A stretch of DNA of 64,000 nt from Promethearchaeota archaeon (GTDB taxonomy: Archaea; Asgardarchaeota; Lokiarchaeia; Helarchaeales; RDOG01), in assembly GCA_011365055.1 (NCBI GenBank), contig RDOG01000002.1, positions 62,001-126,000 of the forward strand, given 5' to 3'. Positions 8,480 to 24,233 of the stretch are shown in pieces; position 1 is the first letter of the stretch, and each line of letters starts with the position of its first letter. The position numbers and the translations under genes are program-made. Below the pieces are notes generated by a model. That model had not been told where the DNA came from and did no database searches. It saw nothing but the letters and a program-made list of their open reading frames with translations.

Positions 8480-8637
8480 TCTTAAGATTTATTAGATGCT
8501 GTATTTGAAGGGATTATAATTACATACATTGGAGGAGGGATAACTAAGTGTAGGAAATAGTTGAAGAAAAAACAGTTATAGAAGTTTATTATAAAGGTTA
8601 TAAAAATGTTACAGTAAATGATTAGGAAAAGAATAAT

Positions 8638-9127: not shown

Positions 9128-9243
9128 AGGTTGGGAGGATTGTTGGATTCAAAGAATAAAGATAAAAATAATACTGTATATTATTCCATAAAGTAATTGT
9201 CCTTAATCTATTACTTAAAAAAATATTTATCAATAAAAATCAT

Positions 9244-9675
9244 TTAATCTGGTACATTTTCTAATCTTTTTATATCCCGAATTCCATCGAAATCAGAATC
9301 AAAGGAAAAAATATAAGCACATTTTAATTTCCAATAGAAGGCTATTGAGTTGGCATCAACATAACTCAATCGATCATATTGGTTGAAGAGGTGAACAGTA
9401 ATTTCACTCATTTTTTCATCATCAAAATACAGATCAATTTTTTCATCAGTATTGAATATTTCCACAATCTTTCTTGCTGGGGTTCCGTAGTTCTTACGTT
9501 TTAAAAAATTAGCTACCTCTGCCATGATAAGATTAGTCACAATTATCTTGTATTTATTTTGACTGTTAACCCAATTAATAATTGATTTTGCTTTTTTATG
9601 ATATTGATCTCTTTTAACAAATGCACCTATCCAAACGCCAGTATCTATAAAAATTAAATTAGCTATACTTCTCAC
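9244..9675 (-). CDS. PIN-domain ribonuclease, VapC-like toxin
   Basis: The 143 residues match the PIN fold. The acidic metal-binding set is visible: D11 in FIDTGVW, E53 in IMAEVANFL, D107 in YVDANSIAF, and D126/D128/D130 in FSFDSDFD. VapC-type toxins cleave tRNA or rRNA. The start is GTG 9675, with the ribosome site overlapping. It follows the 256-residue unknown gene by 9 bases. No typical short VapB (AbrB, RHH or similar) antitoxin is adjacent. The upstream gene is far longer than an antitoxin, so either that gene plays the role or the PIN protein is not part of a classic pair. Confidence 0.85.
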   Translation of the reverse strand: MRSIANLIFIDTGVWIGAFVKRDQYHKKAKSIINWVNSQNKYKIIVTNLIMAEVANFLKRKNYGTPARKIVEIFNTDEKIDLYFDDEKMSEITVHLFNQYDRLSYVDANSIAFYWKLKCAYIFSFDSDFDGIRDIKRLENVPD

Positions 9676-9684
9676 CTTAGAAAA

Positions 9685-10455: not shown

Positions 10456-10461
10456 TATATT

Positions 10462-11349
10462 TTACACCTCTTCATCCAATTCTTTTTCCATACCTTTTGA
10501 AACGATCTCCCTCATTTTTTCTTTCATATCTTCAGGTAACTCTAGTTCTTTTTTCTTTTTTTTCATAACCGGAGAAATTTCTAAAAATCGAGTATAATTA
10601 AATCTCCATTCTTTACATAAATAGAATAAATCATCGAGTGAATCATTTATATATTTATTTTCTTCAGAATCGAAAAATGTAGTAATATTTTTCTTAATTA
10701 ATTCAAATAATTTTTTTATATCTTTCAAAGCAATATTTTTCTCATTTTTTGATGAATAATAATAACTGTATCTTTGGTAATCAAATACTCTAGTTGAATA
10801 TTCTAATATATATTTAAGGATAAAGTGTTTATTTCTAAGACCATGAGTTTTAAAAACTCTTTGTAACTCATCAGTAACTCCTGGCAAAATGGCAGATACA
10901 CTAATAATTATATTATTATTTGTAATTTCATCTACAAGGAATTCTAAGTAATATTTTATAGTGAGATCTGTAAAATTAAGATTTCCCGTATATTTTTCTT
11001 CTTCATATAACAATTTTGATATGAGTTTTCTAAAAAAGTCAGATAACTTTAAAATTGAACCTAAATCAGGAATATTTTCATCTTTCAAATAATCTTTTAA
11101 ATGATTTATCAATTCATTAGTTATTTTAATTTGTTCATCTGGATCAATAATCCTGTCAATAATGCTGGTAAGATCTTTTAAAATAACAGAAAGGAATATA
11201 AACTCTTTAGATTCCAGTATAACTGCATTTGTGTTCATTCTATTACACATAACATTACAAAAATCGTATTTTTGATTTGATAATCCTTCATAATATCCTT
11301 CTAAATCCTCTTTTAGAACCTTTAAAAATTCTATCATTTTAAGAACCAT
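10462..11349 (-). CDS. Helical protein of unknown function, first gene of PIN operon
   Basis: The 295 residues look all-helical. There are several leucine/isoleucine-rich amphipathic segments, a run KKKKKELELPEDMKEKMREI near the C-terminus, and an acidic tail. A short CNVMCNR near residue 32 is not a zinc knuckle by itself. No family is recognised. It is first in a three-gene minus-strand operon ending in the PIN gene. The AT content and Asn/Lys bias equal or exceed those of the neighbouring core genes. Confidence 0.6.
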   Translation of the reverse strand: MVLKMIEFLKVLKEDLEGYYEGLSNQKYDFCNVMCNRMNTNAVILESKEFIFLSVILKDLTSIIDRIIDPDEQIKITNELINHLKDYLKDENIPDLGSILKLSDFFRKLISKLLYEEEKYTGNLNFTDLTIKYYLEFLVDEITNNNIIISVSAILPGVTDELQRVFKTHGLRNKHFILKYILEYSTRVFDYQRYSYYYSSKNEKNIALKDIKKLFELIKKNITTFFDSEENKYINDSLDDLFYLCKEWRFNYTRFLEISPVMKKKKKELELPEDMKEKMREIVSKGMEKELDEEV

Positions 11350-11570
11350 TTCAATATAATTTTCATCTAAATTAAAAATAATGATTCGACTTATTTTTTT
11401 TTCCTATATTGAATTAATCATAATCATCTAATTTTATTCTTATTTAAATAAAACCTTCTAATGATCTCGATAAGAATCATACCATTCAATTGAGTTATTA
11501 AAAAAAATTTTTTATTTTTATATCAAATATTATAATTTAATTACAATGGTTACAAAAATGTAATTATAAA

Positions 11571-12140
11571 TGATAATTAACTCTCTTTGACTTTATATAA
11601 GATGGAGGAAGGGATCGTTTTAGGGTATAAAGTTTTTTTGATGAGATGGAAAAGGTTGTTTTTCATTTTTGACGGTCTTTATTCCTCGAATAAAGACGAA
11701 AAATAGTATAGGAGTATAGAGAAATTAGGGATGAATTTTGGATAATTTACACCAGGTGTTGTTCAATGAAAAATTTTGTTATTAATAGTGATCGTGATTT
11801 TTATGTCAGCTTGGTCAGTTTTTGGAGGGACGTTGAGGTTGATGAGATGGACGACAAAACTGTTTGGGAGTTATTAAATGGATGAGAACGATTGTAACGT
11901 TGATTTGGTAGAGACTAAAGTTTTGATGTAGATGTTGAACGTTCAAGATGGTGGGTCAAGCAGATTTTTTTTGGGACCTAAAAGTTAAGGACTCAAAAAT
12001 TGAGGTTGAAAAAATAGGCTATGAATTTCATAATCGATCCCCTGCAGATCATCATAATCGATCTCTTGGAGTTTGAAATTTGTCGGATTGAGTTGGAGGT
12101 TGGGATCATAATTACAGTTATGATACATAGAGATCTGATC
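11571..12140 (+). repeat. Dispersed repeat copy C (diverged, with insertion) in the 11350-12228 gene-poor gap
   Basis: The gap between the unknown operon and the DUF4145 gene holds a third version of the repeat. The left part (11571-11700) has TTAACTCTCTTTGAC and a perfect 10-bp hairpin, GTCTTTATTC at 11675-11684 and GAATAAAGAC at 11688-11697. The right part (about 12030-12140) has GAAATTTGTCG and GGGATCATAATTACAG, matching the far end of copies A and B. About 330 bases between the two parts are absent from A and B. The palindrome TTGAACGTTCAA lies at 11935-11946. The rest of the gap (11350-11570, 12141-12228) is AT-rich spacer. Confidence 0.6.
11766..11885 (+). CDS. Possible 39-residue acidic peptide inside repeat copy C
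   Basis: An ATG at 11766 follows AGGTG by about 6 bases and opens a frame ending TGA at 11885. The product is acidic and has tryptophans (SFWRDVEVDEMDD, TVWELLNG). It lies in the segment of copy C that is missing from the other copies. Nothing outside the start context supports expression, so this is a weak call. It may equally be a gene remnant. Confidence 0.25.
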   Translation: MKNFVINSDRDFYVSLVSFWRDVEVDEMDDKTVWELLNG

Positions 12141-12228
12141 GTTACGAATTCGTTGAGGAAAAAAAGAAATATGAGTTTGATATTAAGTTATTAAAATTGT
12201 TAAAAGAAACGATAATGAAGGGAGGATT

Positions 12229-12906
12229 ATGAATAAAAAATATATTCCACCACAATTTCAACAAGAAAGATTTAATTGTCCGCATTGTCAAGCATACGCT
12301 CACCAAAGCTGGTACTATGGTGTTAAAGCTAGATTCATAGGTTCACCTATTCAAATTAAAACAGAAACTCATGGCACAATCCCTAATCTTGATGTAAGCG
12401 TTTGTTATAGTTGTAGGAAACATTCTTTATGGATAAAAGAGAAATTAATATATCCAAATCTCTCAATTGCGCCTTATCCTAACGAAGACATGCCAGATGA
12501 CGTTAAAGAAGATTTCTTAGAAGCTAGAAAAGTCGTTCAACTATCTCCAAGATCTGCATCTGCATTGTTACGATTATGTGTTCAAAAACTAATGCTTCAT
12601 TTAGGTGAAAGTGGAAAAAATATTAACGAAGATATAGCAAGTTTAGTAAGAGAAGGGTTATCAGTAACGATTCAACAAGCACTCGATGTTTTACGAGTTA
12701 TTGGAAATGAATCCGTTCATCCTGGACAACTGGATATGAGAGATAACCAAGATGTAGCATTAAAATTGTTCAATGCATTAAATCTCATCATTCAAGATCG
12801 AATCACTCAACCAAAGGAAATGCAATCATTATTTGATAATCTTCCCGATGGAAAGAAAAAAGCCATAGAAAAAAGAGATATGAAAGGAAAAAAACCTAAA
12901 CGTTAA
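12229..12906 (+). CDS. DUF4145-type protein with N-terminal zinc ribbon
   Basis: The 225 residues start with a zinc ribbon (CPHC at about 17-20 and CYSC at about 61-64). A helical DUF4145-like domain follows at about 95-200, with the typical SPRSASALLRLCVQKL, ALDVLRVIGNESVHPG and ALKLFNALNLII segments. DUF4145 is an all-helical, HEPN-like domain often found near or fused to restriction and other defence enzymes. The RxxxxH-like catalytic pair is not obvious; NESVHPG gives a His. The start has a GGAGG site 7 bases upstream. A truncated copy lies at 8638-8859. A role in phage defence is inferred from family habits and island context. Confidence 0.8.
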   Translation: MNKKYIPPQFQQERFNCPHCQAYAHQSWYYGVKARFIGSPIQIKTETHGTIPNLDVSVCYSCRKHSLWIKEKLIYPNLSIAPYPNEDMPDDVKEDFLEARKVVQLSPRSASALLRLCVQKLMLHLGESGKNINEDIASLVREGLSVTIQQALDVLRVIGNESVHPGQLDMRDNQDVALKLFNALNLIIQDRITQPKEMQSLFDNLPDGKKKAIEKRDMKGKKPKR

Positions 12907-12907
12907 G

Positions 12908-13171
12908 TTAGGAAACTTTTATCCCATTTCTCGATAGCTGTTCTTTAAGATATTTTAAAAACAAATTCTTTATTTCAGGATTAATTTTACGATCTTGGTC
13001 TGGAGGGTTACGACGTAAAAAATATTCTTTTATTTCTCCTTCTCCTGAAATCATATGAATTGTCATTTTATTTTGAAGTGATTCAATAAAGAGCATCCAC
13101 TTTTGATTTGTTAATCTAATTTTTCCTCGATCTACTTGTCCGGTCAATTTATCGCTAATAATTTTAATCAT
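12908..13171 (-). CDS. Small basic protein, unknown function
   Basis: The 87 residues convergently face the DUF4145 gene with one base between stops. The sequence has a strand-rich N-terminal half (GKIRLTNQKWMLFIESLQ, MTIHMISGEGEIKEYFL) and a helical basic C-terminus (IKNLFLKYLKEQLSRNG). No motif is recognised. It is the last in a same-strand run of very small genes spanning 12908-14664. Confidence 0.5.
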   Translation of the reverse strand: MIKIISDKLTGQVDRGKIRLTNQKWMLFIESLQNKMTIHMISGEGEIKEYFLRRNPPDQDRKINPEIKNLFLKYLKEQLSRNGIKVS

Positions 13172-13273
13172 TTTTTCTAATAAAGAAATTTCATCTTTAT
13201 GTAAAAAATAAATACTTTCAAATGCTTCTCCAAGTTTATTTTCTTTTATATAAATATAAAAATCTTTTAATAT

Positions 13274-13417
13274 CTACTTTACTTTCTTCTCTTTCTTATT
13301 TTCATTACACCATCTTTGCCAAAGGTATAAAATCATTGCAAAGAATAATGCAGAGAAAACACCAGAAAAGATACTACCTATAAAAGCAACTAATATATCC
13401 CAAGGGAGAGAAACCAA
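13274..13417 (-). CDS. Single-pass membrane microprotein (47 residues)
   Basis: A frame from TTG 13417 to TAG 13274 encodes a short N-terminus, one strongly hydrophobic helix (about 8-32: ILVAFIGSIFSGVFSALFF) and a very basic tail (ENKKEKKVK). This positive-inside layout is what a small bitopic membrane protein looks like. No strong ribosome site precedes the TTG, and it begins 21 bases after the stop of the 70-residue zinc protein, so it may be read by coupling. Small membrane proteins of this kind occur as antitoxins, toxins or regulators; none is recognised. Confidence 0.45.
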   Translation of the reverse strand: MVSLPWDILVAFIGSIFSGVFSALFFAMILYLWQRWCNENKKEKKVK

Positions 13418-13438
13418 GTCCGTTATTTATTTTTTATC

Positions 13439-13651
13439 TTATCTATCCGACTCTTCAATAAATCCTGCAACAAAACCACATTCAGAACATAAATAATACT
13501 TTGGGTAAACATCTTGCCAAGTTCTTTCCATAACTGATCCAAAAGGTGTTGGTGGTTCTGCTTTTACCCGTAGATCCTCAGGAAAACCACCTTGATATTT
13601 TTCCAATTCTTTCATTTCTGGATTATTACAAAATGGACATATTTTTGTCAT
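13439..13651 (-). CDS. Small two-knuckle zinc-ribbon protein (70 residues)
   Basis: CPFCNN near the N-terminus and CSECG near residue 55 bracket a hydrophilic proline-rich middle, giving a classic zinc-ribbon skeleton. The ATG at 13651 has GAGGG 6 bases upstream and a promoter-like 26-base element 30-55 bases upstream that is shared with the SecB-like gene. No family is recognised. Ribbon proteins of this size often bind nucleic acid or partner proteins. Confidence 0.6.
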   Translation of the reverse strand: MTKICPFCNNPEMKELEKYQGGFPEDLRVKAEPPTPFGSVMERTWQDVYPKYYLCSECGFVAGFIEESDR

Positions 13652-13680
13652 GTAAATCCCTCTTCTAAGTATGATAAAAT

Positions 13681-13706
13681 GATAGAGTAACTACTATAAG
13701 TAAGTA
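13681..13706 (-). promoter_or_regulatory. Shared promoter-like element, copy 1
   Basis: Read on the minus strand, the element contains TACTTACTTATAGTAG and then TTACTCTATC. The copy at 14460-14485 agrees at 24 of 26 positions. Both sit 30-70 bases upstream of a start on the same strand (13651 and 14413). The TTATA core suits a TATA box. Its conservation beyond the TATA core suggests co-regulation of the two genes. Confidence 0.5.
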
Positions 13707-13735
13707 TTTGTGAAAAGGAAGGGAATAAAAAAAAG

Positions 13736-13861
13736 TTAGGAATCATTGGAAGAATCCTTTTGTTTTACTTTTTGGATTATCTCCTCTAACTCCTTGGCTG
13801 AGATTCTTTTTTCTTGGTTATCGGAAGGGTTTCGAGGTTTGATCTTGTCTCTGTCGAACAT
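13736..13861 (-). CDS. Hydrophilic microprotein (41 residues)
   Basis: ATG 13861 to TAA 13736 encodes a charged peptide: a basic, proline-containing N-terminus (FDRDKIKPRNPS), then one amphipathic helix (ISAKELEEIIQKVKQK). A TATA-like TTTTTATATC (minus strand, 13904-13913) lies about 45 bases upstream. The helix pattern is reminiscent of small antitoxins, but there is no firm evidence. It is one of six consecutive small minus-strand genes. Confidence 0.4.
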   Translation of the reverse strand: MFDRDKIKPRNPSDNQEKRISAKELEEIIQKVKQKDSSNDS

Positions 13862-13957
13862 GAGTATAGCCTTCGTTTTTAGGTTACATTCTTACTTAGT
13901 CGAGATATAAAAAGGTAGCTTGTTAAATAGAGAAAAAGAAGGTTAAAAGTATTAGGT

Positions 13958-14413
13958 TCATCTTTGAGAGTATGTTTTTCTAACCATATCCATAAACACG
14001 TTTACAGGAGGGAAAACTTCTTTTGGTACGCCCGCACTTACTGAAACTCTAACTGCATGTTTATAACATTCTTGAATAATGAATGGGTTCATTAATGACT
14101 TTATTCCGGGAGGCATTTCGTTAATTAAAAAATCAAAACGAGATTGTTCTTGATGAGTTCTTGTTTCTAAAGTACAAGTTCCATCAAAATTAACTTTGAT
14201 AATGTCTGGCTTTCCCTCTAAATTAAAGTTAAACGTAAATCTTCTTTCTGTTGATGTAATTAACTGTTGATCCCTATAATCAAGATTCCAACTAAAGCCT
14301 ATCTTAACCTATTTATCTTTTTGTACCAAAAACGAACCTTTTTCTACTCTATCGTTTGTGAAATTAAAATTTTTAACTCTAATGGTTGCTTCTATTTCTG
14401 GAATGATGTTCAC
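13958..14413 (-). pseudogene. SecB-like chaperone gene interrupted by an in-frame TAG
   Basis: From GTG 14413 (AGAGGTG context) the frame reads 34 codons to a TAG at 14309-14311, then continues in the same frame for 116 codons to TGA 13958. The total of 151 positions is the usual SecB length. The downstream part has alternating strands (RRFTFNFNL, IIKVNFDGTCTL), a two-helix end (NPFIIQECYKHAV) and the late segment AGVPKEVFPPVNVF. That last segment resembles the GTFPQLNLAPVNF signature of SecB. SecB-like proteins exist in some archaea and as chaperones of toxin-antitoxin systems. The family call is by pattern only. The TAG is a nonsense mutation, a sequencing error, or read-through. Confidence 0.5.
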
Positions 14414-14459
14414 CTCTTACGTTTTAATTACCAGAATTTCCTATTAAAGGTAAGAACAC

Positions 14460-14485
14460 GATAGAATAACTATTATAAGTAAGTA
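14460..14485 (-). promoter_or_regulatory. Shared promoter-like element, copy 2
   Basis: This element has the same 26-base core as 13681-13706, with two differences. It lies 47-72 bases upstream of the GTG of the SecB-like gene and downstream of the Cys-rich microprotein. It reads TACTTACTTATAATAG on the minus strand. Confidence 0.5.
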
Positions 14486-14511
14486 TGCATAAAGGGAAAA
14501 GATTATCAATG

Positions 14512-14664
14512 TTACGGATTGCTACAAGGAGAGTTAGGGCAACAGTCGCAACAGTAATCTCGGCAACTTTCAGGAACGTGTTCTCTATCTTCTTCATGAT
14601 ATAGGATCATTACACATCCTAAACAATAAACTTTGGGTTTATCATGCTGAAATTCATAAGACAT
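14512..14664 (-). CDS. Cysteine-rich microprotein (50 residues)
   Basis: ATG 14664 to TAA 14512. Eight of the 50 residues are cysteine. A first CLGC knuckle sits at about 14-17, and then a dense C-terminal cluster SCRDYCCDCCPNSPC. A TATA-like TTTTATAAGAG (minus strand, near 14692-14702) lies about 30 bases upstream. The cluster would suit zinc or an Fe-S centre, or a disulfide-rich peptide. No known family (for example metallothionein) clearly fits. The open frame and promoter position support a real gene. Confidence 0.5.
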   Translation of the reverse strand: MSYEFQHDKPKVYCLGCVMILYHEEDREHVPESCRDYCCDCCPNSPCSNP

Positions 14665-15131
14665 GTTAAATACCTAAAAAACCGTTTGAATATCTCTTAT
14701 AAAAAAATTGCGTTGAACGTTCAAGTTGAAAAAAAAGGAAATGGAAACTTTTTGATGGTCTTGTCGTCAAGAGGGAATATATAGAGGAGGAAGAGGGAAA
14801 TTCTGAAAAATAAGTCGGTAAGACGTTCACCAAGCTTCCTGATATTCCTTACACTTGATGTTAGAAAAATCGTATTTAAAGACCTTGGATCAATGATTTT
14901 CGATAACTCTTTTGAATAAATAAAGCATTTCCAAGTTTTGGATTGGGTGTGAATTTTCTTTTAACTTATAATGAGTTAAAAAAAGTTTCGGGACTTTTGG
15001 CGGTACTTGTAGAGAAGATTTTGGAAAAATTTCTTATTTTTTATATACGTGAAATTTCAAACGTTTATAAGACCTTTTCAATATTTTCTGTTAAATTCAA
15101 TAATCTAATTATAGGAACCTCTTTTTCAGGG
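14665..15131. other. Gene-poor stretch with partial repeat copy D and a promoter for the 15132 gene
   Basis: Near 14745-14780 the text TTTTTGATGGTCTTG...CAAGA echoes the hairpin region of repeat B, here with only a 5-bp stem (TCTTG 14759-14763, CAAGA 14768-14772). The palindrome TTGAACGTTCAA recurs at 14713-14724. A strong TATA-like TTTTTTATATACG at 15035-15047 lies about 90 bases before ATG 15132. That position argues that the longer open frame from 14943 is not the real start. Confidence 0.45.
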
Positions 15132-15374
15132 ATGGAAAAAATGAAGGTAAAAGTAAAAAAAATGATAAAAACAATAACGAAACACTTGTTAAAATGTAAT
15201 AAATGTGGATTAGAATGGGAACCAAGACTTAAGCATCCTAAATACTATCCTGGATGCAAAAATCCCATTCAATATATCGAAGATGAAGAGTCTAAAACAA
15301 AGGGTAGCCATTCCCAAAGTTTAAATGTTAATAACAATAAAAATAGAAAGGAGGAAATAAAAAATGAGAGATAA
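15132..15374 (+). CDS. Small basic zinc-binding protein
   Basis: I place the start at ATG 15132 (or 15141), giving about 80 residues, because the TATA-like box at 15035-15047 lies inside the longer frame. The sequence has a very basic N-terminus (KVKVKKMIKTITKH), then KCNKCGLEWEPR and YYPGCK, a minimal zinc site of the type seen at the end of ribbon proteins. The tail is polar. Its stop overlaps the start of the next gene by 11 bases, so they form an operon. The function is unknown. Confidence 0.5.
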   Translation: MEKMKVKVKKMIKTITKHLLKCNKCGLEWEPRLKHPKYYPGCKNPIQYIEDEESKTKGSHSQSLNVNNNKNRKEEIKNER

Positions 15375-16014
15375 GGAACCAGAAAAAGAAAGAGAATTGG
15401 AAGAAGTGTTAAAAATCGGGAGGAAAAAAAGATCTGAAAAAAGAAGACAAGAAAGAGGTAAAGAAGTCGAAGAGGTTAACAAAGAATTAAAAGATAAATT
15501 TAGTGAAGGAGAAATAAGTGAAGGAGAAATAATCTTTCACGTCCCTACTTCTGGTATATTTCCAGGTTATAACTTGAAAAAAGTGGTGGAAACAAGAATT
15601 GAGAGAAAAATCCTACCGTTTTCTTTACCTTATCATCATTGTAGCCAGTCGGACTGTAATAAAAAACTTGATGATTTTTACGTTGAATATACAAATATTG
15701 ATATTCGTTTCTGCCTACCTTGTTTCTTTAAATTTATAGAAAGAGAGCAAAAAAGTATTGACGTGATCAAGACCTTCACGGAGAAAAAGACTTTAAAACC
15801 AGAACCTTTTATGATAGAAGCAAGTTACATCACTTGCAAGGATTGTAAAGGTGAAGGAATAAACATACGGACTCGTGAAACATGTAATGCTTGTAGAGGC
15901 ATGGGACGCAAAATAGATATTAAGTTCGATGGAAATAATGGAGATATTCTTTCAGAAAACATTGACATTGCACGACAGATTAAAAGCGTTCTTGACTTGC
16001 CGTATTTAAAATAA
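15364..16014 (+). CDS. Protein with coiled-coil start and DnaJ-type zinc finger end
   Basis: The 216 residues begin with a highly charged coiled coil (1-55). A Cys-containing middle follows (HHCSQSDCNKK, FCLPCF). At about 158-182 there is a CKDCKGEGI...CNACRGMGRK pair that closely follows the CxxCxGxG repeats of DnaJ zinc fingers. No J domain is present, so it is not a co-chaperone of the standard kind. It may bind unfolded protein or RNA. A strong GGAGG site precedes the ATG. It overlaps the preceding small zinc gene. Confidence 0.6.
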   Translation: MRDKEPEKERELEEVLKIGRKKRSEKRRQERGKEVEEVNKELKDKFSEGEISEGEIIFHVPTSGIFPGYNLKKVVETRIERKILPFSLPYHHCSQSDCNKKLDDFYVEYTNIDIRFCLPCFFKFIEREQKSIDVIKTFTEKKTLKPEPFMIEASYITCKDCKGEGINIRTRETCNACRGMGRKIDIKFDGNNGDILSENIDIARQIKSVLDLPYLK

Positions 16015-16144
16015 AAAATTCCATCCGCTTTTTTTTCTTTAATCATTAAAAAGTAGGTATAAATTTATGTTCCCAAAAAACATAAAAAAAATTGATAACG
16101 TCAAAAAAAGGATTGTTTATAAAATGTTAAAAAAATAGAAAAAA

Positions 16145-16402
16145 ATGAGGGAAATGCCTGTAGTGGAGATAGAATATTATCTAAAAGATACTTTGCCTGA
16201 GTATCTAAAGGAAGAAGCGGAAAAAATTAAAGTTGAATTAGGTAATGGTGTCATTGCAGTGAAAATACACTTAGATTCAAAATCTTCTTATGAATTCGTG
16301 AATATTGAACTGTCAGTTGATGGTTACAAAAAATTTCTTAAATATATAGCAGAACAGGATGGTGCTGACTTAAATAAAATAGCGGAAAGTATGAGTGTAT
16401 GA
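16145..16402 (+). CDS. Small acidic alpha/beta protein, unknown function
   Basis: The 85 residues show beta strands (VVEIEYYL, VIAVKIHL, FVNIELSV) and helices (LPEYLKEEAEKIKVEL, YKKFLKYIAEQ). The start is ATG 16145 or ATG 16154, the latter with GAGGG just upstream. It sits 52 bases before the AbiJ-like gene on the same strand, so the two may be linked. No family is recognised. Confidence 0.5.
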   Translation: MREMPVVEIEYYLKDTLPEYLKEEAEKIKVELGNGVIAVKIHLDSKSSYEFVNIELSVDGYKKFLKYIAEQDGADLNKIAESMSV

Positions 16403-16454
16403 CTTTTTCTTTTTTTAGAAAAAACTTAAAAACAAGTTTAATCAATTTGAACCC

Positions 16455-17303
16455 ATGCCAACATTTTCAGAGAGAAGAGGGATAATTCCCAAAAGAGAAA
16501 CCTTTCAAATGGAATCTTTGGAAGATTCAACAAGAATATTGTTATTTAATTGTATAAATATAACTTATGTTGACTCTTGCATCAAATTCAATAGTAATCC
16601 TGAAATTATAAAGTTTAGACAAAAACTGTGGGGCGTATTCTTTAAAAAAACTGTTGATAGTCTTCCAGAAGCACATAGATTAATTGATGATTTTGTTAAA
16701 AAATATGTTCTTCGTGCAGAATGGAATCTTGTCTATGAAGTAATTGAATTTCTAATTCAGAACTTTCCTAACGAAGTTCTTAATAACAAGTTTATAAAAG
16801 AAGCAAATAAAATTTTAAAAGAAGAAATGACAGGATATACAATCATAAACAAGTTGGTTGAACCGATCACGTCTAATGGAGAGATACGCGAGATAGAAAA
16901 GGTTTTGGAATCACCTTTAGATATCGTTAAATCTCATATAAAAAACTCTTTAGAACTTTTGGCGAAAAAACCGACTCCAGACTATCGAAACTCCATAAAA
17001 GAATCAATAAGTGCTGTAGAAGCCTTTGCTTATTTAATTGTAAGACCAACAAATAGACGCGAAATGACTTTAGGTAATATGTTAAACAAATTAGAAGAAA
17101 GTGGGATTGTTTTACATAAAGATCTAAAAAACGGTTTTAAAAAATTATATGGATATACAAATGATGACGATGGAATAAGACATGCTTTAAAAGATGAGCC
17201 AAATTTAGATATGGAAGATGCGAGATATTTTTTAGTTGCTTGTTCAGCATTTATTAATTATCTCATTGAAAAAGCAACAAAAGCTAACATTCATCTATCT
17301 TAA
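16455..17303 (+). CDS. AbiJ-like abortive-infection protein (AbiJ-NTD4 plus HEPN-type C-terminus)
   Basis: The 282 residues start MPTFSERRGIIPKRE, the hallmark of the AbiJ N-terminal domain 4 family. The C-terminal part has the conserved SISAVEAFAYLI, MTLGNMLNKLEESGI, DGIRHALKDE and YFLVACSAFINYLIEKA. These match the HEPN-like end of such proteins, with GIRHA as the candidate catalytic region. These proteins act in phage defence, probably by cleaving RNA and stopping growth of infected cells. The upstream TATA-like AAAAACTTAAAAAC fits a leaderless transcript. Its presence in the island supports a defence reading. Confidence 0.8.
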   Translation: MPTFSERRGIIPKRETFQMESLEDSTRILLFNCINITYVDSCIKFNSNPEIIKFRQKLWGVFFKKTVDSLPEAHRLIDDFVKKYVLRAEWNLVYEVIEFLIQNFPNEVLNNKFIKEANKILKEEMTGYTIINKLVEPITSNGEIREIEKVLESPLDIVKSHIKNSLELLAKKPTPDYRNSIKESISAVEAFAYLIVRPTNRREMTLGNMLNKLEESGIVLHKDLKNGFKKLYGYTNDDDGIRHALKDEPNLDMEDARYFLVACSAFINYLIEKATKANIHLS

Positions 17304-17360
17304 CTTTTTTTGGGTTTTCCAATGATCTACATCGTATCGATCTCACCATCCTCATTATGA

Positions 17361-17638
17361 TCGATCCCATAACTACAATTATGATCCCACTTGCAATCAC
17401 AAATCGACAAATTTCGATGCAAAGTCCTTCCTGTCCATCGATCCTGCATCACTAATATAATATTGCTTTTTTTCAAATTCATCATTCCAGATCCTTATCG
17501 TTTCATCATTACTATCGTCTTTATTCTCCTGAATAAAGACCATCAAAAACAAGCACCTGCTTTTTACTTGTAAACTATAAAACTTTTTTTCATTCAAGCG
17601 ATCTTCTACCTAACTCAAAAAAAAAGTCAAAGAGAGTT
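17361..17638 (-). repeat. Dispersed repeat copy B (inverted relative to copy A)
   Basis: The reverse complement matches 8848-9127 at about 90% by eye. It includes a perfect 10-bp hairpin, GTCTTTATTC at 17517-17526 and GAATAAAGAC at 17531-17540. It lies just after the AbiJ-like gene, so copies A and B bracket the 9-kb segment with the PIN, DUF4145 and AbiJ genes in opposite orientation. A 66-residue frame on the minus strand inside it (from 17597) is not preserved in copy A. Confidence 0.75.
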
Positions 17639-17986
17639 AATTTCTTCCAATTCAAAGCAATCTTGTTTTAAAGTATTATTGGACTTTTGTTAAAAAATTT
17701 TTAATTTTTGCCAATTGCGGATCTCGCAAGTAATGCTTGATATATAAAAAGATACCCGACAAATTGCTCTCGGACAAGAAGCGAGAACTTAACTTTTGAT
17801 ATTTAAAGCTTAGTGCGAATTTAATATATAGATAAATAAAGTTATTCCAAAGGTTCTCAACCAAAGCTGATTGGACGGAATTAGCATTAAATTTGGATGC
17901 ATAAGGTTAGTTATGAATCCAAATGACCGTTCAATCATCTATTGAATCTTGTGAATATTGTCAATTACTAATCCAATGAGAAGTTA
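17639..17986. other. AT-rich gap before the membrane-ATPase operon
   Basis: No convincing gene is present. A 62-codon minus frame (17676-17864) has no ribosome site and no recognisable content. The last 100 bases must hold the promoter of the operon beginning at 17987, but no clear TATA box is seen. Confidence 0.4.
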
Positions 17987-18862
17987 ATGATGCATATTGT
18001 AAATATTATTCCTGAACTAGATTATTATGTTAATTTTCTATTCTTTTTGTTTTTTGGGTGTTTTTCATGTTCTATCATGTTTTGGATTGGATTTCAATAT
18101 CTCTCAAAAGTTAAAGAAAAGCACTGGATTCTTGAAATTGCATGGTACATATGTGTTGGATTATCAGGGTTGGGAATAATAGTACATGAAATTGGACATT
18201 GGATCATGGCTAAATTATTTCATATTGAGGTAGCTCGTACAAACTTGTTATCTGTAAATCTTGATCCATTTGGAATGGAGGGACACGTTGACATGGATCA
18301 ACATAATAACTTTATTGCAGATTTATGTATTGCAATCGGTCCTATTATTTCAAATATTATATTAATTATGATTTTGTACATTTTTTATTGGTACACAGAT
18401 GATAATTTAATGAAGGGAGCCTTGATATTTATGATGTTTTCTCTATTTATGGGTGCTCTTCCATCTGGTGCAGATATAATGGTTTTAGGAGGCTCATTTA
18501 AGAGGAATTTCAAGCAAGGAATTGCTACAATTACATTTTTATCAATATCTTCCTTGCTAATGTTTTTTATTTTTTATGAAATTCTAGGATCCTTCCTGAC
18601 AATAGCGTTATTTTTCTCAATTATGGTAATAGGTTTTATTTTTATTACACGCTTTTGTTCATCCGATGCCTTAAAAAATCATTCAATTAGTCAAATGACG
18701 AAAGAACAACAACCCAAGAGTGAAGGTTCCGAAATTAGAAAAGTACTTGGAGAGGATAAATATCGAGATCTATTAAACAGTTTGGAATCAATAAATAAAA
18801 TTGATGAAAATAAAATAAATATAGAAAATAAAGAAGGAGATGATTATTCTGAATGGATATGA
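17987..18862 (+). CDS. Membrane metalloprotease-like protein (M50/site-2 type)
   Basis: The 291 residues have about six membrane segments. A zinc protease motif HEIGH is at 67-71 inside the second or third helix (GIIVHEIGHWIMAKLF), and FMGALPSGAD lies near 158-166 where site-2 proteases carry the third metal ligand. The C-terminal 60 residues are soluble and charged. M50 proteases cut within membranes; similar folds occur in non-protease membrane proteins, so activity is inferred. It is first of four co-oriented genes and overlaps the second by 23 bases. Confidence 0.6.
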   Translation: MMHIVNIIPELDYYVNFLFFLFFGCFSCSIMFWIGFQYLSKVKEKHWILEIAWYICVGLSGLGIIVHEIGHWIMAKLFHIEVARTNLLSVNLDPFGMEGHVDMDQHNNFIADLCIAIGPIISNIILIMILYIFYWYTDDNLMKGALIFMMFSLFMGALPSGADIMVLGGSFKRNFKQGIATITFLSISSLLMFFIFYEILGSFLTIALFFSIMVIGFIFITRFCSSDALKNHSISQMTKEQQPKSEGSEIRKVLGEDKYRDLLNSLESINKIDENKINIENKEGDDYSEWI

Positions 18863-19304
18863 AAATAAGAAATTACTAAAAGATCTAATATTTATGCTAG
18901 AATTTGCCTTAAGCGGTTCATTATTTATCATTGGTCTTTACCACTTAATTATTCTATTATATTTACCAGTTTGTATTTTAACAGACACGCCTCTACCACA
19001 AATTTTAAGCGACGTTTTAATCACTTCGTTGAATGATTTTTTTCTCAAGTTTGTTACTTTCTTTTGTATATTTTTTATTAGTTGCAGTTTGGTTTATTCT
19101 TATCGATTACTAAAACTGCAATGCTTTTGGTGTGGCTCCAAATTAGAAGAAAACGGTCAAATATTGAGTGAATGTCCTATTTGTAGGGAAATACCTCTTA
19201 ATGAGTTACTTGTAATGAAAATTAGGAGTAAATTCTTTAGAGGTCCTCATGTTAAAATTGTTCTTGATAAAGATTGGAATATAATTAAAAGGATTGAATT
19301 TTGA
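18840..19304 (+). CDS. Membrane protein with C-terminal zinc ribbon
   Basis: The 154 residues show two membrane helices (about 14-45 and 68-92). A cytosolic zinc ribbon follows (CFWCGSKLEENG, ECPICREI; about 100-125) and then a short basic tail. The gene overlaps the protease-like gene by 23 bases and is followed 15 bases later by the ATPase gene, so the proteins are probably made together. No family is recognised. It may anchor or regulate the ATPase. Confidence 0.6.
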   Translation: MIILNGYENKKLLKDLIFMLEFALSGSLFIIGLYHLIILLYLPVCILTDTPLPQILSDVLITSLNDFFLKFVTFFCIFFISCSLVYSYRLLKLQCFWCGSKLEENGQILSECPICREIPLNELLVMKIRSKFFRGPHVKIVLDKDWNIIKRIEF

Positions 19305-19319
19305 CGGAGAATTCTAGAG

Positions 19320-22300
19320 ATGTATTTACTTTTTTTTTCAATAACATTTTTAATTAGCATGTCCTTTTTAATCATGTTCTCATTTATTGTAGCTCAATGG
19401 GCGAGAGCAAGGCATAATTTTTATGATAATGATAGTATAAATGGATTTTTCAAGATATTATTAATTATTTCATCTCTTGGTCTCTTTACTTCAACTTGTG
19501 TATTCTTCATGGATAATCTCATATTCATCTTAATGAATGTTGGATGTATTTTTTTGAACATTTACTTCATGTTTGAGTGGATGAAAAAGTATAGTTTGAC
19601 ATTAATGAGTGACATCACAGCAATTCAATTTGTTTGTTTAATTTTTTGGCAAGTTGATTTTATTTCAATGTTCATGAGTATTGGCATGGTGATATTACTT
19701 GGAGTTTTCCTTCTTTTTACATGTATTATTCAAGATAAATATGTTTTAAAATACGTTGAGCACGCAATAAGGATCTTTGAATTATACGGAATATTTGAAA
19801 ATTATCATGAAAATATCCAATATGAAGATGAAAAACGAAATGTAAAACTTCTAAATACTCCAAAAATTAGCTATAAAAGCGTAGTAGATGCTATACAAGA
19901 TGCCTATTTTAATGTTACCCGAAATATTGTTAATATGATGCTAGAGTGTGAAATTATTCATCTTGTACAAAAGGGATTTCCAAGATATTTTATTGTTATT
20001 AAAGCAAAAACGGAATCAAAAGCTGAGAAATTACGAAAATTATTAAAAGGACACTTAAAAGTGAATTTAAACCAATTAAAATTCGTGGATATAGACCGGC
20101 TACCGTTTGAAATTTGGGATTCTAATGATCACTTCTTCGTGAAACGATTAGATGGAATCCTCGCACCACATTACATTAAAGATCCCCTATCGAGATTCAC
20201 GCGTTTTCTAAAAGATGAGCAAGCCACAGGATTTCTTATCACGGTTCTCAAGCCAAAAAAGGCATCATGGCAAGTTAAAAGTAATATAAAATCAATGGCT
20301 AGTAAGACTTTGTCACGTTCGGGATATTATCGACCTGAAGGAAAGAATATAAATCGATTATCTGGTATTCAACGTTATCATGTGAAGGGAAGCATTGAAA
20401 AATACCATGCGTCTCAAAATATGGCTAAAAAACTTGGGGATCGCGTGAAAACGCTTGCAATTAGTGTCAAGAATGGAAAATCCGTTTTATATGGGAAGAC
20501 TTTTCTTGCTTTAACTGATCCAAACATCTTCACGAGCGCGATTAACACGATTACAAGAGGATTACAAGGTCTTGAAAAACCTTACAAGTGGAAAATGGAA
20601 AATGATAAATATTTTTTAGCGAAGGTTCAAAAATTTGTAACTCCTGTATCATTGGATTTATTTATTCCGCCCATTGGGGCAAATTTTTTCTGGGTTCCAC
20701 AAGAAAAAGTAGGATATAGAAATTTAGGAAGTTGGATACCTGATAGCTCCAACCTCGCTAATATCAAAGAATGGAATGAAACCAGAAAACCCATGTTAAG
20801 TTTTGGTAAAATAATAAATGAAGAATTAGCCGTCCATATACCTCCAAATTATTTGAAATATGGAACTTTAGTGGTTGGGCTTCAAGGAACTGGAAAATCC
20901 ACCGCAGTTAAGGGAACATTGCTTGAATTTGATAAATTGAACATTAATTTTTTGCTTTGCGAGGGTGCTAAAAGCGAATACAGAAATTTAACCAGTAACA
21001 TCAAGACATTAAACGTCTTCACACCAGCTGATGAAAAGACTGCACCGTTCAAATTTAATATTTTACAAGTACCCGAAGGTGTGCCGGTATCAACTCACGT
21101 ATTTACGATTAAAGAGCTCTTTCGTCAACAATTTGCTCTTTATCCCCCAGGAGGTCACGTGCTTAAACAAGCTTTAGAAGAAATTTATGAAGACTTAGGA
21201 TGGGATCTTATAAGAAATGAACCACCACCTATTGGTAGACAAAAAACACCTACCTTACAAGCACTTGCTTTAAAATGTAAGGAAATTCTTACAAAAAAGA
21301 ATTTATACGATGAAGAAACCCGATTGACCGTTCATTCAGCATTAGTTGTTCGAATTGAAGAACTTGGTGAAGGTGTATTAGGTCCAGTTTTTAATGCACC
21401 GATGAGCATGAGCATCCGCGAACTGATAGAATCTAAAACCATAATTGAATTAAAGTATCTAGCTACTCCGGAATACCGTGCACTTTTAATTTCAGTCTTA
21501 CTTGCCAATATCATCAATTATTTTGAATTTCTTAAGGACATTCAACCCCAATTGCTTCAAAATAGTCCTAGAAATAAACCTAAATTCGTGCTCTTAATTG
21601 AGGAAGCACATACCGTATTCAAGAAAATTCCAGAAGTTGCCGATGCAACTGAAATGCAGAACATACAAGGATTTACAAACGAATTGTTACATCGAGTACT
21701 TGCAGAAGGACGAGGACATGAACTAGGTATCGTGTTAATTGATCAAAATCCCACCAGCCTTCCAGATATTGCTTTGAAATTACCTCGAACTCTATTGAGT
21801 TTTAAAATTGACGATTTGATTGAACGAGAAGCTATAAGGAACGCGAAAAACTTGAATAATAACGATCTCAAACAATTAGCAAGTCTAAAAACAGGAATGG
21901 CATGCTTGAAAGTGAAAGACATTGAAAGTGCATTTTATGTGCAATTTCCCTCATTAAAAGAACTGCATTTTGCAGATTTAGACGTCTCAAAGAAAGAATT
22001 AGCAGATTTAATGAGAATAAGATTTTTTAACCAACGAAGTGAATTGTTACGACCTTTTAAAAATAGAAAAATCTTGAATTTGGTTAATTCAATAGTATTT
22101 CATAATGATTTTTTTGAAAAATTAGGTATCTACGCAGAATCTAATGAAGATTTAAACCCATTAATTGATTTTTTAATCATGGAAGCTTTTCCTTTGAAAG
22201 AACACGGCATTGAGATAAGTGAGTTAGTCGAATCGTTATTAAAAGAAGCGCTTGCCAAATATTCGGTGTTTAAATCTAAGGGAAATGAAGAAATGTTTCT

Positions 22301-22334
22301 TAAAAAATTTAGAATTCAACTTGAAGCTTACTAA
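19320..22334 (+). CDS. Membrane-anchored VirB4/HerA-type ATPase
   Basis: The 1004 residues begin with four to five membrane helices (1-140). A middle domain of about 350 residues is unlike standard HerA. From about 515 there is a FtsK/HerA-superfamily motor: Walker A VVGLQGTGKST (about 518-528), Walker B FVLLIEEAH (about 754-762), and the late motif AEGRGHELGIVLIDQNP (about 800), typical of VirB4/HerA/CedB-like DUF87 proteins. Such motors pump DNA or protein through hexameric rings. Gene order and N-terminal helices recall conjugation or DNA-import motors such as VirB4 or CedB. No relaxase or pilin is nearby, so the role is open. Confidence 0.85.
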   Translation: MYLLFFSITFLISMSFLIMFSFIVAQWARARHNFYDNDSINGFFKILLIISSLGLFTSTCVFFMDNLIFILMNVGCIFLNIYFMFEWMKKYSLTLMSDITAIQFVCLIFWQVDFISMFMSIGMVILLGVFLLFTCIIQDKYVLKYVEHAIRIFELYGIFENYHENIQYEDEKRNVKLLNTPKISYKSVVDAIQDAYFNVTRNIVNMMLECEIIHLVQKGFPRYFIVIKAKTESKAEKLRKLLKGHLKVNLNQLKFVDIDRLPFEIWDSNDHFFVKRLDGILAPHYIKDPLSRFTRFLKDEQATGFLITVLKPKKASWQVKSNIKSMASKTLSRSGYYRPEGKNINRLSGIQRYHVKGSIEKYHASQNMAKKLGDRVKTLAISVKNGKSVLYGKTFLALTDPNIFTSAINTITRGLQGLEKPYKWKMENDKYFLAKVQKFVTPVSLDLFIPPIGANFFWVPQEKVGYRNLGSWIPDSSNLANIKEWNETRKPMLSFGKIINEELAVHIPPNYLKYGTLVVGLQGTGKSTAVKGTLLEFDKLNINFLLCEGAKSEYRNLTSNIKTLNVFTPADEKTAPFKFNILQVPEGVPVSTHVFTIKELFRQQFALYPPGGHVLKQALEEIYEDLGWDLIRNEPPPIGRQKTPTLQALALKCKEILTKKNLYDEETRLTVHSALVVRIEELGEGVLGPVFNAPMSMSIRELIESKTIIELKYLATPEYRALLISVLLANIINYFEFLKDIQPQLLQNSPRNKPKFVLLIEEAHTVFKKIPEVADATEMQNIQGFTNELLHRVLAEGRGHELGIVLIDQNPTSLPDIALKLPRTLLSFKIDDLIEREAIRNAKNLNNNDLKQLASLKTGMACLKVKDIESAFYVQFPSLKELHFADLDVSKKELADLMRIRFFNQRSELLRPFKNRKILNLVNSIVFHNDFFEKLGIYAESNEDLNPLIDFLIMEAFPLKEHGIEISELVESLLKEALAKYSVFKSKGNEEMFLKKFRIQLEAY

Positions 22335-22382
22335 ATATACTAAAAAAATAAAAAAGAATTGGTTCAAAAAAAGTGATTCTAA

Positions 22383-24197
22383 ATGACATCTCAACGCAAC
22401 ATACCTGAAAGTGCTGTGGAAAAGAAAGAAAAAGCACGAAAAGAGTCTGAAAAAAGTAAATCTTCAATTGTTCCTAGAGATAAAAGCGTAATCAAGCTTG
22501 AGCGGTTAATAAATAAAGATCAATATGTAAAAAAAATGGAAGATGAAATTAAGGACGGAAAAATAACTCAAGTTCTAAAAAATAAAAACGATTCGATCAT
22601 TGATAAGCTGAATAAATTGAATTCCATTGAGAAATCAACTGAGAAAAGCAATTTAAAAAAGAAAGACCTGATAGATAAAATAAATTTGTTAAATACTGTC
22701 AATATACCAGAAAAACAACTTGATCCTAAAGAAAATGATATAATCGACAAGATTAATAAGTTAAATCGCTCAGAAAGCGCGAATAATGAGATACTTCAGA
22801 ATGAATCAAATATAGAAACAAATAATGAACAAGAAAGTGATCCAGAACGAAAACCGCATGGTTATTGGAAGGATCCGGAAAACTTTTATCGCGAAATGCA
22901 AGATGCAATTGATGCAAATGACGGAAAGTTTCCAATGCAGAAAGAATTAAGAGAAATGGGCTTTATAAGTCTGGATGTAGTTTCAAGAAATTATGGGGGA
23001 TTAATGGAAGTTAAAAAAAAAATGGGATTTACGCTGGATAAAAAACCTTTTTTCTATTGGAAAAATCCTGAAAATTTTTATGAGGAAGTTAAAAGAATTT
23101 TAGAAAAAAATAACAATCAATTACCAAGTATGAATGAATTGAAAAAGACGGGGAAGGGAAATATTGTTGACGCAGCAAAACGATATTACGGTGGCATGAG
23201 AAACGTGAGAAAACAACTCGGACTTGATTTGATGCGAAAACCTCCTGAATATTGGAAAGATCCTGAAAATTTTTTTAAGGAAATGAAAAATTTTATCAAG
23301 GAAAATAATAGTGAATTCCCTACTATTGATCAATTAAGAAGAAAAAAACGTCATGATTTGGAAACAGCTGCTGAGAAACTTTATGGAGGTCTTTTTGAAG
23401 TAAAAAAGAAAATGGGTCTTCTTACAGAAAATGATTCAAAATTTACCTATCCAGATAGAAAACCAGCTAATTATTGGAAGAATAAGGAAAATTTTTTTGG
23501 AGAAATGGAAAAATTAATTAAAAATAATGATAAAAATTTTCCAACTTTACCTGAATTGGAAGAAATGGGAAGAAAAGATTTACAAAATGCGATTGTAAAA
23601 TATTATGGAGGTATAAATAACGTTCGAGCTATAATGGGATTTCCTATAGAAAATATTGCAGAAAGAAATGCTTATTTTAGTCGTAGAGGTTATTCTACTG
23701 AACGAATAACTATTAGTATAATCAAAAATTGGATGGATTTAAATGGATTTAATTATTCTACAAAAAAACAAATAAAAGTTAGTTCAAAAAGGCAACTTGA
23801 ATGTGTATGCGGAAAAAATAAAAAAATTGGAATAGATATTACTAATGCTAAATATCCAAGAACTGTAGAAATGAAATGGACAAAACGAATGTATCACAAA
23901 TATGTAGATCAATTGTGGATCATAGTAGTTTCTGATAAATGGAATGAAAAACAATATAAAAAATGGAATCAAATATCCCCAGATAATGTTACGGTCGTCA
24001 ATTACAAAAATCTGGTCTCTTTCTTGAATGAAATAAGCTCAGGTAATGTCGATTTTGATATTCCTCATAAAAAAAAGATCCAACTTGAAGCACTCGCAAG
24101 ATGCACGTTTGAAAATCGAGAAAAAATTAAAAGAGAATATGAAATGCTGAAAAAACAAAAATCAATCGAAGAATTTTTTGATGATAAAAAAGAATAG
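22383..24197 (+). CDS. Homing-endonuclease-associated-repeat protein with PD-(D/E)XK-like nuclease end
   Basis: The 604 residues have a charged N-terminus with three DKINKLN-like repeats (about 75-140). Four copies of a 62-66 residue module then start near 156, 219, 284 and 358 (PxxYWKDPENF ... FPTxxELxxMG ... YYGGLxxVKKKMG). This module matches the homing-endonuclease-associated repeat, thought to bind DNA. The C-terminal domain (about 430-560) has GIDITNAKYPRTVEMKW, a D-(n)-ExK arrangement of PD-(D/E)XK nucleases at about 482-497. It follows the ATPase by 48 bases. A detached copy of its tail lies at 8318-8479. The repeat call is firmer than the nuclease call. Confidence 0.75.
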   Translation: MTSQRNIPESAVEKKEKARKESEKSKSSIVPRDKSVIKLERLINKDQYVKKMEDEIKDGKITQVLKNKNDSIIDKLNKLNSIEKSTEKSNLKKKDLIDKINLLNTVNIPEKQLDPKENDIIDKINKLNRSESANNEILQNESNIETNNEQESDPERKPHGYWKDPENFYREMQDAIDANDGKFPMQKELREMGFISLDVVSRNYGGLMEVKKKMGFTLDKKPFFYWKNPENFYEEVKRILEKNNNQLPSMNELKKTGKGNIVDAAKRYYGGMRNVRKQLGLDLMRKPPEYWKDPENFFKEMKNFIKENNSEFPTIDQLRRKKRHDLETAAEKLYGGLFEVKKKMGLLTENDSKFTYPDRKPANYWKNKENFFGEMEKLIKNNDKNFPTLPELEEMGRKDLQNAIVKYYGGINNVRAIMGFPIENIAERNAYFSRRGYSTERITISIIKNWMDLNGFNYSTKKQIKVSSKRQLECVCGKNKKIGIDITNAKYPRTVEMKWTKRMYHKYVDQLWIIVVSDKWNEKQYKKWNQISPDNVTVVNYKNLVSFLNEISSGNVDFDIPHKKKIQLEALARCTFENREKIKREYEMLKKQKSIEEFFDDKKE

Positions 24198-24233
24198 GGA
24201 GAGACTATTTTTTTAGAACTGAGCATTTATAGG

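What the first reader, a model, noticed from the sequence alone, without database searches (positions are those of the whole stretch)
17987..24197. Four-gene operon linking a membrane protease, a membrane zinc ribbon, a VirB4/HerA-type motor and a repeat-nuclease
Genes overlap or are spaced by 15-48 bases, so they should be made together. The combination of M50-like HEIGH protein, TM zinc ribbon, ATPase with N-terminal membrane helices and Walker motifs, and a nuclease with four homing-type DNA-binding repeats is not a set I know. It looks like a membrane DNA-handling machine for defence, conjugation or DNA uptake. Relaxase, pilin and integrase genes are missing, which argues against plain conjugation.
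Basis: partly seen in the sequence, partly recalled or inferred. Interest (0 to 1): 0.8.

Follow-up and report, generated by a model that had tools for sequence, protein, structure and literature searches.

The report
Membrane protease, DNA pump, swappable nuclease
In an Asgard archaeon, four neighbouring genes encode a membrane-embedded protease, a small membrane zinc protein, a membrane DNA-pump motor and a probable DNA-cutting protein; some related archaea keep such a protease next to the pump while swapping pump and cutter, which suggests a modular DNA-cutting system of unknown purpose, possibly defence.

Summary
The four-gene operon is real (17987-24197; overlap 23 bp, gaps 15 and 48 bp): an M50-type membrane protease with intact metal ligands, a TM zinc ribbon, a HerA/VirB4-class ATPase with N-terminal hydrophobic helices, and a protein with four homing-type repeats plus a probable PD-(D/E)XK nuclease. 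The host is an Asgard archaeon. The exact four-gene set was found nowhere else, but part of its order recurs: 11 of 58 M50 ORFs read have a HerA ATPase as next gene (9 genomes); a large gene follows in the 8 loci where it can be seen, 6 of them with nuclease motifs or HTH repeats, mostly by eye. The other 47 M50 ORFs have other neighbours. In eight locus pairs DNA similarity ends 0-16 bp past the M50 stop; one genome holds a copy matching one sibling on the protease side (93%) and another on the ATPase side (90%). Protease and motor-nuclease thus seem exchanged as cassettes yet kept adjacent. In the window the operon ends a 16.4-kb island, with two candidate defence genes, where relatives carry PriL between PCNA and PriS. 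Best reading: a protease-controlled, membrane-tethered HerA-nuclease conflict system. DNA transfer, homing cassette and toxin export remain open; no function was shown.

The parts
17987..18862 (+). M50-type (site-2-protease-like) membrane metalloprotease, 291 aa, six hydrophobic segments, HEIGH 67-71, distal D163
18840..19304 (+). 154-aa membrane protein, three hydrophobic segments then a CxxC-CxxC zinc ribbon; no family match above cut-off
19320..22334 (+). 1004-aa HerA/VirB4-class ATPase with N-terminal hydrophobic helices (within residues 1-137), middle region not modelled, ATPase core about 490-880
22383..24197 (+). 604-aa protein: helical N-terminus, four homing-type DNA-binding repeats (about residues 161-420), probable PD-(D/E)XK nuclease domain (about 430-560)
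7841..24233 (.). 16.4-kb island between primase small subunit (6599-7840, -) and PCNA (24234-25106, -), at the place where relatives carry the primase large subunit
8316..8396 (+). 81-bp, 90% identical copy of nuclease-gene bases 23989-24069 at the primase end of the island
16455..17303 (+). neighbouring candidate defence gene: AbiJ_NTD4 domain, PADLOC PDC-S32 (context, not claimed as part of the operon)

Best explanation
The operon encodes one membrane-tethered DNA-cutting machine used in genetic conflict (defence against, or exclusion of, foreign DNA). Shown: gene order and spacing, intact motifs, HerA-class core, four repeats, a recurring M50-HerA-large-gene order in other Asgard genomes, and loss of DNA similarity at the M50 stop between such loci. 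Inferred: the HerA ATPase forms a ring held at the membrane by its N-terminal helices (perhaps with the zinc-ribbon protein), pumps double-stranded DNA and feeds it to the repeat-guided nuclease; the M50 protease is the control element, cutting a transmembrane segment of the zinc-ribbon protein or of the ATPase to release or activate the motor-nuclease when the membrane is breached. The nuclease cassette sets specificity and is swapped; the protease is the reusable part.
For: M50 followed directly by HerA: 11 of 58 M50 ORFs, against 1 HerA ORF (95 bits or more) among about 536 other ORFs of the same regions, Fisher p 3e-11 on loci that were not a random draw. Cassette exchange: eight locus pairs lose DNA similarity 0 to +16 bp from the M50 stop; L190 is 93% like L191 on the protease side and 90% like L246 on the ATPase side, all three in genome G143. 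HerA loci with a same-strand gene of 150 aa or more within 200 bp downstream: 37 of 43, 33 of them within 60 bp. Content there: LAGLIDADG_3 in 4 and Sigma70_r4 in 4 of 31 scanned proteins, window included; one profile group of 3 with LAGLIDADG and 15 further loci linked to it moderately or indirectly. Defence setting: PDC-S32 (E 1e-94) and PD-T7-4 (E 7e-88) in the same island; the closest ATPase relative lies 1.4 kb from a Cas3 gene followed by Cas5. HerA of antiphage HerA-nuclease complexes is among the best structural matches of the core.
Against: No function was tested. The four-gene set as such is unique to the window among what was searched. The window ATPase is a long branch with unresolved place (45/31 support); in pairwise search it is closest to TM-bearing ATPases that have no M50. 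The 11 M50-linked ATPases show no N-terminal hydrophobic segments. 26 of 58 M50 ORFs have a different partner pair, so M50 is not specific to HerA (my count). In four further pairs with different ATPases (L187-L192, L187-L242, L191-L242, L203-L242) similarity ends 125-178 bp before the M50 stop, not at it. Arrays of DNA-binding repeats suggest recognition of long sites, unusual for defence (inference). HNH, GIY-YIG and VSR-like assignments are by eye; Pfam did not report these families. Two archaeal defence surveys do not mention HerA, M50 or LAGLIDADG in their main text.
Confidence: 0.4

Rival explanations
1. DNA transfer machine: a reduced Ced/conjugation-like exporter or importer in which the homing-type nuclease replaces the relaxase by cutting at a particular site and the membrane HerA/VirB4 motor moves the DNA.
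For: Leaving aside the functionless 'serine-rich' model, CedD is the best NCBIfam hit of three TM-bearing relatives (L113 E 1e-19, L112 4e-18, L115 4e-10; window 2e-4), all far below its cut-off; for L112 HerA_antiphage is close behind at 2e-15. VirB4 is among the top structural matches of the window core (TM-score by target 0.75). Loci L115, L116, L120 and L121 carry 104-108-aa, 206-226-aa and 270-287-aa membrane proteins directly before the ATPase, and L119 the last two, a layout like pilin, partner and channel. PMC11868833 (passages) describes CedD as TM domain plus N-terminal domain plus HerA/VirB4 ATPase.
Against: No pilin, relaxase or channel gene recognised among the window genes scanned; the 104-aa proteins match no solved structure meaningfully and L115's three membrane proteins match no NCBIfam model (I do not know whether that library holds CedA or CedA1); residues 84-477 of the window ATPase could not be modelled, so a VirB4-type N-domain is untested; I know of no role of M50 in such systems (recalled).
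Confidence: 0.25
2. Selfish homing cassette: the HerA-nuclease pair is a mobile element that targets the 3' end of M50-type genes and other sites, with M50 a landing place rather than a partner.
For: DNA similarity stops at the M50 stop in eight pairs; downstream proteins carry homing-type nuclease features of several families, partly by eye; a piece of the nuclease gene lies at the other end of the island; the island occupies the PriL place in a replication-gene cluster.
Against: A HerA motor is not needed for homing (recalled); M50 and HerA keep one orientation at gaps of -4 to 168 bp; in the window the zinc-ribbon gene, not the cassette, follows M50; many HerA-large-gene pairs have no M50.
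Confidence: 0.15
3. Toxin export: M50 is a releasing or extruding membrane peptidase and HerA a secretion motor for nuclease toxins used against other cells, as proposed for PrsW-dependent polymorphic toxins.
For: PMC3482391 (passages) describes membrane-embedded PrsW peptidases coupled to restriction-type nuclease toxins; a bacterial relative of the ATPase on a Treponema plasmid is followed by genes annotated HNH endonuclease and SMI1/KNR4 (that SMI1/KNR4 proteins are SUKH immunity proteins is recalled); variable nucleases behind long acidic N-termini, by eye.
Against: No immunity gene recognised in the window genes scanned; neighbours of the M50-HerA loci were not scanned for one. DNA-binding arrays are not typical of secreted toxins (recalled). 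Signal peptides were not tested.
Confidence: 0.12
4. Ordinary: four unrelated accessory genes collected in an island, co-directional by chance.
For: Island of mixed content; the exact set was found nowhere else; window M50 is only 17-23% identical to the ten others aligned.
Against: Overlap and short gaps; recurrence of the M50-HerA order.
Confidence: 0.08

Closest known systems
HerA-NurA and HerA-nuclease antiphage complexes (SIR2-HerA, DUF4297-HerA; also DndH and TdpAB)
   Same: HerA-class motor acting with a nuclease; the window ATPase core matches HerA of these entries and DndH in the structure search. That TdpAB is antiphage is recalled
   Different: Here the ATPase carries N-terminal membrane helices, the nuclease carries homing-type repeats and gave no NurA, SIR2 or DUF4297 match, and an M50 gene heads the operon
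Ced DNA-import system (CedB/CedD) and VirB4
   Same: Membrane helices plus HerA/VirB4 ATPase; CedD is the best function-bearing NCBIfam hit of three TM-bearing relatives
   Different: Scores far below the curated cut-off; no CedA, CedA1 or pilin homologue recognised; nuclease and M50 are not Ced parts in the passages read
Asgard M50-HerA loci found here (L168, L187, L190, L191, L192, L203, L242, L244, L246, L247, L249)
   Same: M50 followed by HerA ATPase and, in the 8 loci where it can be seen, a large gene (in L249 behind a 296-aa gene)
   Different: ATPases of 639-700 aa without N-terminal hydrophobic segments, no zinc-ribbon gene between, other nuclease families
PrsW-dependent polymorphic toxins (PMC3482391, passages)
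   Same: Membrane-embedded peptidase linked to nuclease modules
   Different: M50 not PrsW, separate genes, HerA motor, no immunity gene recognised

Membership tests
M50 / site-2 proteases | HExxH in a membrane helix and a distal metal-ligand Asp | tested here: met
   H67, E68, H71 and D163 invariant in 11 of 11; Pfam score 24.5 bits, below the 27.2 cut-off
HerA/FtsK-class ATPases | RecA-like core with Walker A, Walker B and HerA-type C-terminal part | tested here: met
   Pfam HerA_C only 11.4 bits against 22, NCBIfam HerA model below cut-off
HerA-NurA repair system | NurA nuclease partner | tested here: not met
   No NurA family reported for the nuclease protein
Ced system | CedD model score above curated cut-off | tested here: not met
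   20.1 bits against 600
Ced / conjugation | Channel (CedA/VirB6) and pilin (CedA1/VirB2) genes alongside | tested here: inconclusive
   None recognised among the operon genes and neighbours scanned; distant forms could be missed
VirB4 | VirB4-type N-terminal domain | tested here: inconclusive
   Residues 84-477 modelled at pLDDT under 50
MADS / other PADLOC HerA defence systems | Further components of the same system | tested here: not met
   Only mad8-like and HerA-like core hits; no second component of those systems among 10 window genes scanned
PD-(D/E)XK nucleases | D...(D/E)xK active site in the alpha/beta fold | tested here: inconclusive
   GID...VExK in window and P0012-P0014, no E in L167; low-confidence model, hits include FokI, Can2, XisH and PspGI but all E above 4e-3, and the top hit is unrelated
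HNH_repeat (homing-endonuclease-associated repeat) | Pfam PF18780 above cut-off | tested here: not met
   13.2 bits against 26, though four repeats are clear and relatives P0015 and P0016 carry PF18780
Any of these | Biochemical activity | not testable with these tools
   -

The most novel reading that the evidence does not exclude
A previously undescribed, diversifying Asgard conflict system in which an intramembrane M50 protease gates a membrane-tied HerA DNA pump, and in which pump and site-recognising homing-type nuclease are exchanged as a cassette at the M50 stop codon, so that one protease module serves many DNA specificities.
Probability: 0.33. Interest if true: 0.88.

Novelty: new variant of a known kind. 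Interest (0 to 1): 0.72.

Why it matters
If the reading is right, this is a DNA motor and nuclease under the control of an intramembrane protease, a coupling that no title or abstract in my paper listings described, in the archaea held to be closest to eukaryotes. The sharp cassette boundaries make it testable: protease and motor-nuclease can be mixed and the specificity of each nuclease mapped. If it is a DNA-transfer system instead, it would point to a relaxase-free way of moving DNA in Asgard archaea.

Tried and rejected
The protein search returned only the window's own M50 and, for the ATPase, nine proteins of 23-27% identity besides its own. PDB profile of the LAGLIDADG-type group A4: no match; PDB searches for L192, L247 and L191: nothing meaningful; L242 weak to PI-PkoII at E 0.2. 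I first read the gene upstream of M50 in L187, L190, L191 and L192 as a TFB paralogue; Pfam and NCBIfam on L192's copy did not support it, so it is not claimed. The six-TM proteins of L115-type loci were considered as M50 because of an HExxH; it is absent in L116, L117, L119 and L120, so rejected. The A3 profile at E 1e-6 hits 218 of 227 genomes, the whole HerA superfamily, and is not used as prevalence. Tree placement of the window ATPase is unresolved. Plasmid and phage collections: ATPase matches in 41 plasmid records, the 12 listed rows all bacterial, and in 2 unannotated phage fragments; no match of the nuclease in phages; the nuclease was not searched in plasmids.

Bias to note: L168 was fetched because it held hits to both M50 and ATPase. 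The other M50 regions were taken from the M50 lists; G148:C191, G108:C70 and G160:C7 had by then been seen to have ATPase hits too. 57 M50 loci were read, not every hit of those calls. One region (L206) held no M50 ORF at the profile threshold and is not counted; L200 holds M50 as two ORFs, counted as two; a weaker HerA-like ORF lies two genes from the M50 of L184 and is not counted.
Full report
What is there. The window comes from an Asgard archaeon: its proteasome ATPase is 72% identical to Helarchaeota. No genome is held for it. The four ORFs lie as described and are tightly packed. The M50 protein has the HExxH and a distal Asp that are invariant in 11 of 11 aligned relatives. The 154-aa protein has three hydrophobic segments and two CxxC. 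The ATPase has five hydrophobic segments at its start and a HerA-class core with Walker motifs at 520 and near 758. The last protein has four repeats, against a mean of 0.003 in shuffles, and a C-terminal domain with GID..VExK shared with P0012-P0014. Models of modest confidence place the ATPase core with HerA, VirB4 and DndH and give weak hits for the nuclease, many but not all of them restriction-endonuclease-fold proteins.

Setting. PCNA was found in 12 of 12 relatives searched; I read the neighbourhood in 3 of them. There the order is OB-fold gene, PCNA, a gene of 369-404 aa, PriS, and a gene matching window 6038-6598. Pfam names the 369-404-aa gene primase large subunit in two of the three; the third was not scanned. 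The PCNA-PriS distance there is 1.2-1.5 kb (coordinates). In the window it is 16,393 bp, and tblastn with the three relatives' proteins found no PriL in the window. The operon is the PCNA-side end of this island, which also holds a PIN gene, a PD-T7-4 homologue and a PDC-S32 homologue. At the PriS side lies an 81-bp, 90% copy of part of the nuclease gene.

The motor and its large neighbour. Single-sequence searches of 227 Asgard genomes gave ATPase matches in 42 at E 1e-3, many weak, M50 matches in 49 at E 0.01 and nuclease matches in 6 at E 0.01, one of them strong. The nearest ATPase (L112) is 35% identical over the core. I read 43 of the stronger HerA hits in context, 6 of them M50-linked: 37 have a same-strand gene of 150 aa or more within 200 bp, 33 within 60 bp; 3 end at a contig edge; 3 have none; 22 have two or more hydrophobic segments in the first 250 residues. 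Of 31 downstream proteins scanned (window included; not always the first gene behind), 4 match LAGLIDADG_3, 4 match Sigma70_r4 and 1 an intein splicing domain. Profile comparison gives three groups: one of 3 loci with LAGLIDADG (Pfam on L225), one of 13, one of 2. The second and third are alike (E 5e-16), the first and second moderately (E 6e-5, probability 64%), the first and third not (E 0.08). HTH arrays with an HNH-like end occur in L115 and L119 (Pfam for HTH; HNH by eye).

The protease and the motor. Among 58 M50 ORFs in 57 loci, 11 have a HerA ATPase as the next gene, gap -4 to 168 bp, in 9 genomes (G107, G148, G143 three times, G133, G153, G138, G108, G114, G160). The same regions hold 652 ORFs and 12 HerA ORFs of 95 bits or more, 11 of them in that slot (Fisher p 3e-11; the regions are not a random draw). 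26 of the 58 have instead a membrane protein of about 115 aa followed by a Walker ATPase of about 236 aa (my count). In the 11 loci the large gene is visible in 8 (in L249 behind a 296-aa gene). Its content: LAGLIDADG with a Hint-like part in L242, two HNH motifs in L191, GIY-YIG in L192, a FEYNGIQHY (VSR-like) motif in L187 and L247, all by eye; HTH repeats in L203 by Pfam; nothing recognised in L168 and L249. Pfam did not report HNH, GIY-YIG or VSR families among the 31.

Cassette exchange. Comparing the 11 loci as DNA, eight pairs are alike up to the M50 stop or at most 16 bp past it and not beyond: L187 with L190, L191 and L203; L192 with L203; L190 with L191 and L203; L191 with L192 and L203. 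In four other pairs with different ATPases similarity ends 125-178 bp before the stop. Three pairs (L190-L192, L190-L242, L192-L242) are alike straight through. L190 and L246, from the same genome, are 90% alike from 15 bp before the M50 stop to the contig end while their proteases differ; L190 and L191, also from that genome, are 93% alike on the protease side while their ATPases are 28% identical. L190 differs by 7% and 10% from its two siblings, so it is not a simple misjoin of them, and L192 and L242 in other genomes carry the L190-type combination inside contigs. L187, L190 and L191 have their constant part at contig ends, so assembly caution remains.

Reading. The protease is kept beside a motor-nuclease pair that changes; that argues for a working link. 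HerA motors paired with nucleases are a known theme in defence and repair; the added intramembrane protease, and homing-type nucleases in place of SIR2, DUF4297 or NurA, are what differ. I prefer protease-controlled DNA cutting in genetic conflict, at 0.4, because of the island setting and the exchange pattern. DNA transfer is the main rival, because TM-bearing relatives score against CedD and the core against VirB4 and because some loci carry further membrane genes, which gave no match to known families. The homing-cassette and toxin-export readings explain parts of the data.

Literature. Passages were seen in PMC11868833 and PMC9905601 (Ced and Ted systems), PMC3482391 (polymorphic toxins), PMC9259645 (archaeal fusexin mobile elements with HerA and VirB4) and PMC10853773 (Dnd systems). 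A term search of PMC12988326 and PMC11291487 found no HerA, M50 or LAGLIDADG in the main text. In the listings no title or abstract shown describes an M50-HerA-nuclease operon; the full texts of most were not read.

Noticed in passing
window 12229-12906 and 8638-8859: PD-T7-4 homologue (PADLOC E 7e-88, DUF4145) and, by DNA and protein resemblance, a piece of a second copy at the primase end of the island.
   Followed up: partly
window 8839-9127 and 17361-17647: 289-bp inverted repeat, 92% identical, with weaker stretches at 11575-11699 and 12075-12122; it frames the part of the island that holds the PIN, PD-T7-4 and PDC-S32 genes.
   Followed up: partly
window 7841-24233: Primase large subunit is missing from its usual place between PCNA and PriS; whether it lies elsewhere in the genome is unknown.
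   Followed up: partly
M50 ORFs: Many M50 proteins end in a tryptophan, often EAQW at the very C-terminus, in both gene contexts; the window protein ends in SEWI.
   Followed up: no
L169, L173, L176, L177 and others: A second recurring set: M50, a membrane protein of about 115 aa and a Walker ATPase of about 236 aa (26 of 58 M50 ORFs), often with a divergent 408-435-aa CxxC gene.
   Followed up: no
L115, L116, L120, L121 (and L119): Membrane proteins of 104-108, 206-226 and 270-287 aa directly before a TM-bearing HerA ATPase; no known family for the three L115 proteins; in L119 the small one was not seen.
   Followed up: partly
L240 1825-10692 (Treponema plasmid pTS2): Bacterial serine-rich relative of the ATPase followed by genes annotated HNH endonuclease and SMI1/KNR4, with two dynamin-family genes upstream.
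   Followed up: no
L112 8007-15888: Closest ATPase relative lies about 1.4 kb from a Cas3 gene, next to a Cas5 gene.
   Followed up: no
L167 2-3612: Closest genomic relative of the nuclease (36%, 32%) sits directly behind an SF2 helicase gene instead of a HerA gene.
   Followed up: no
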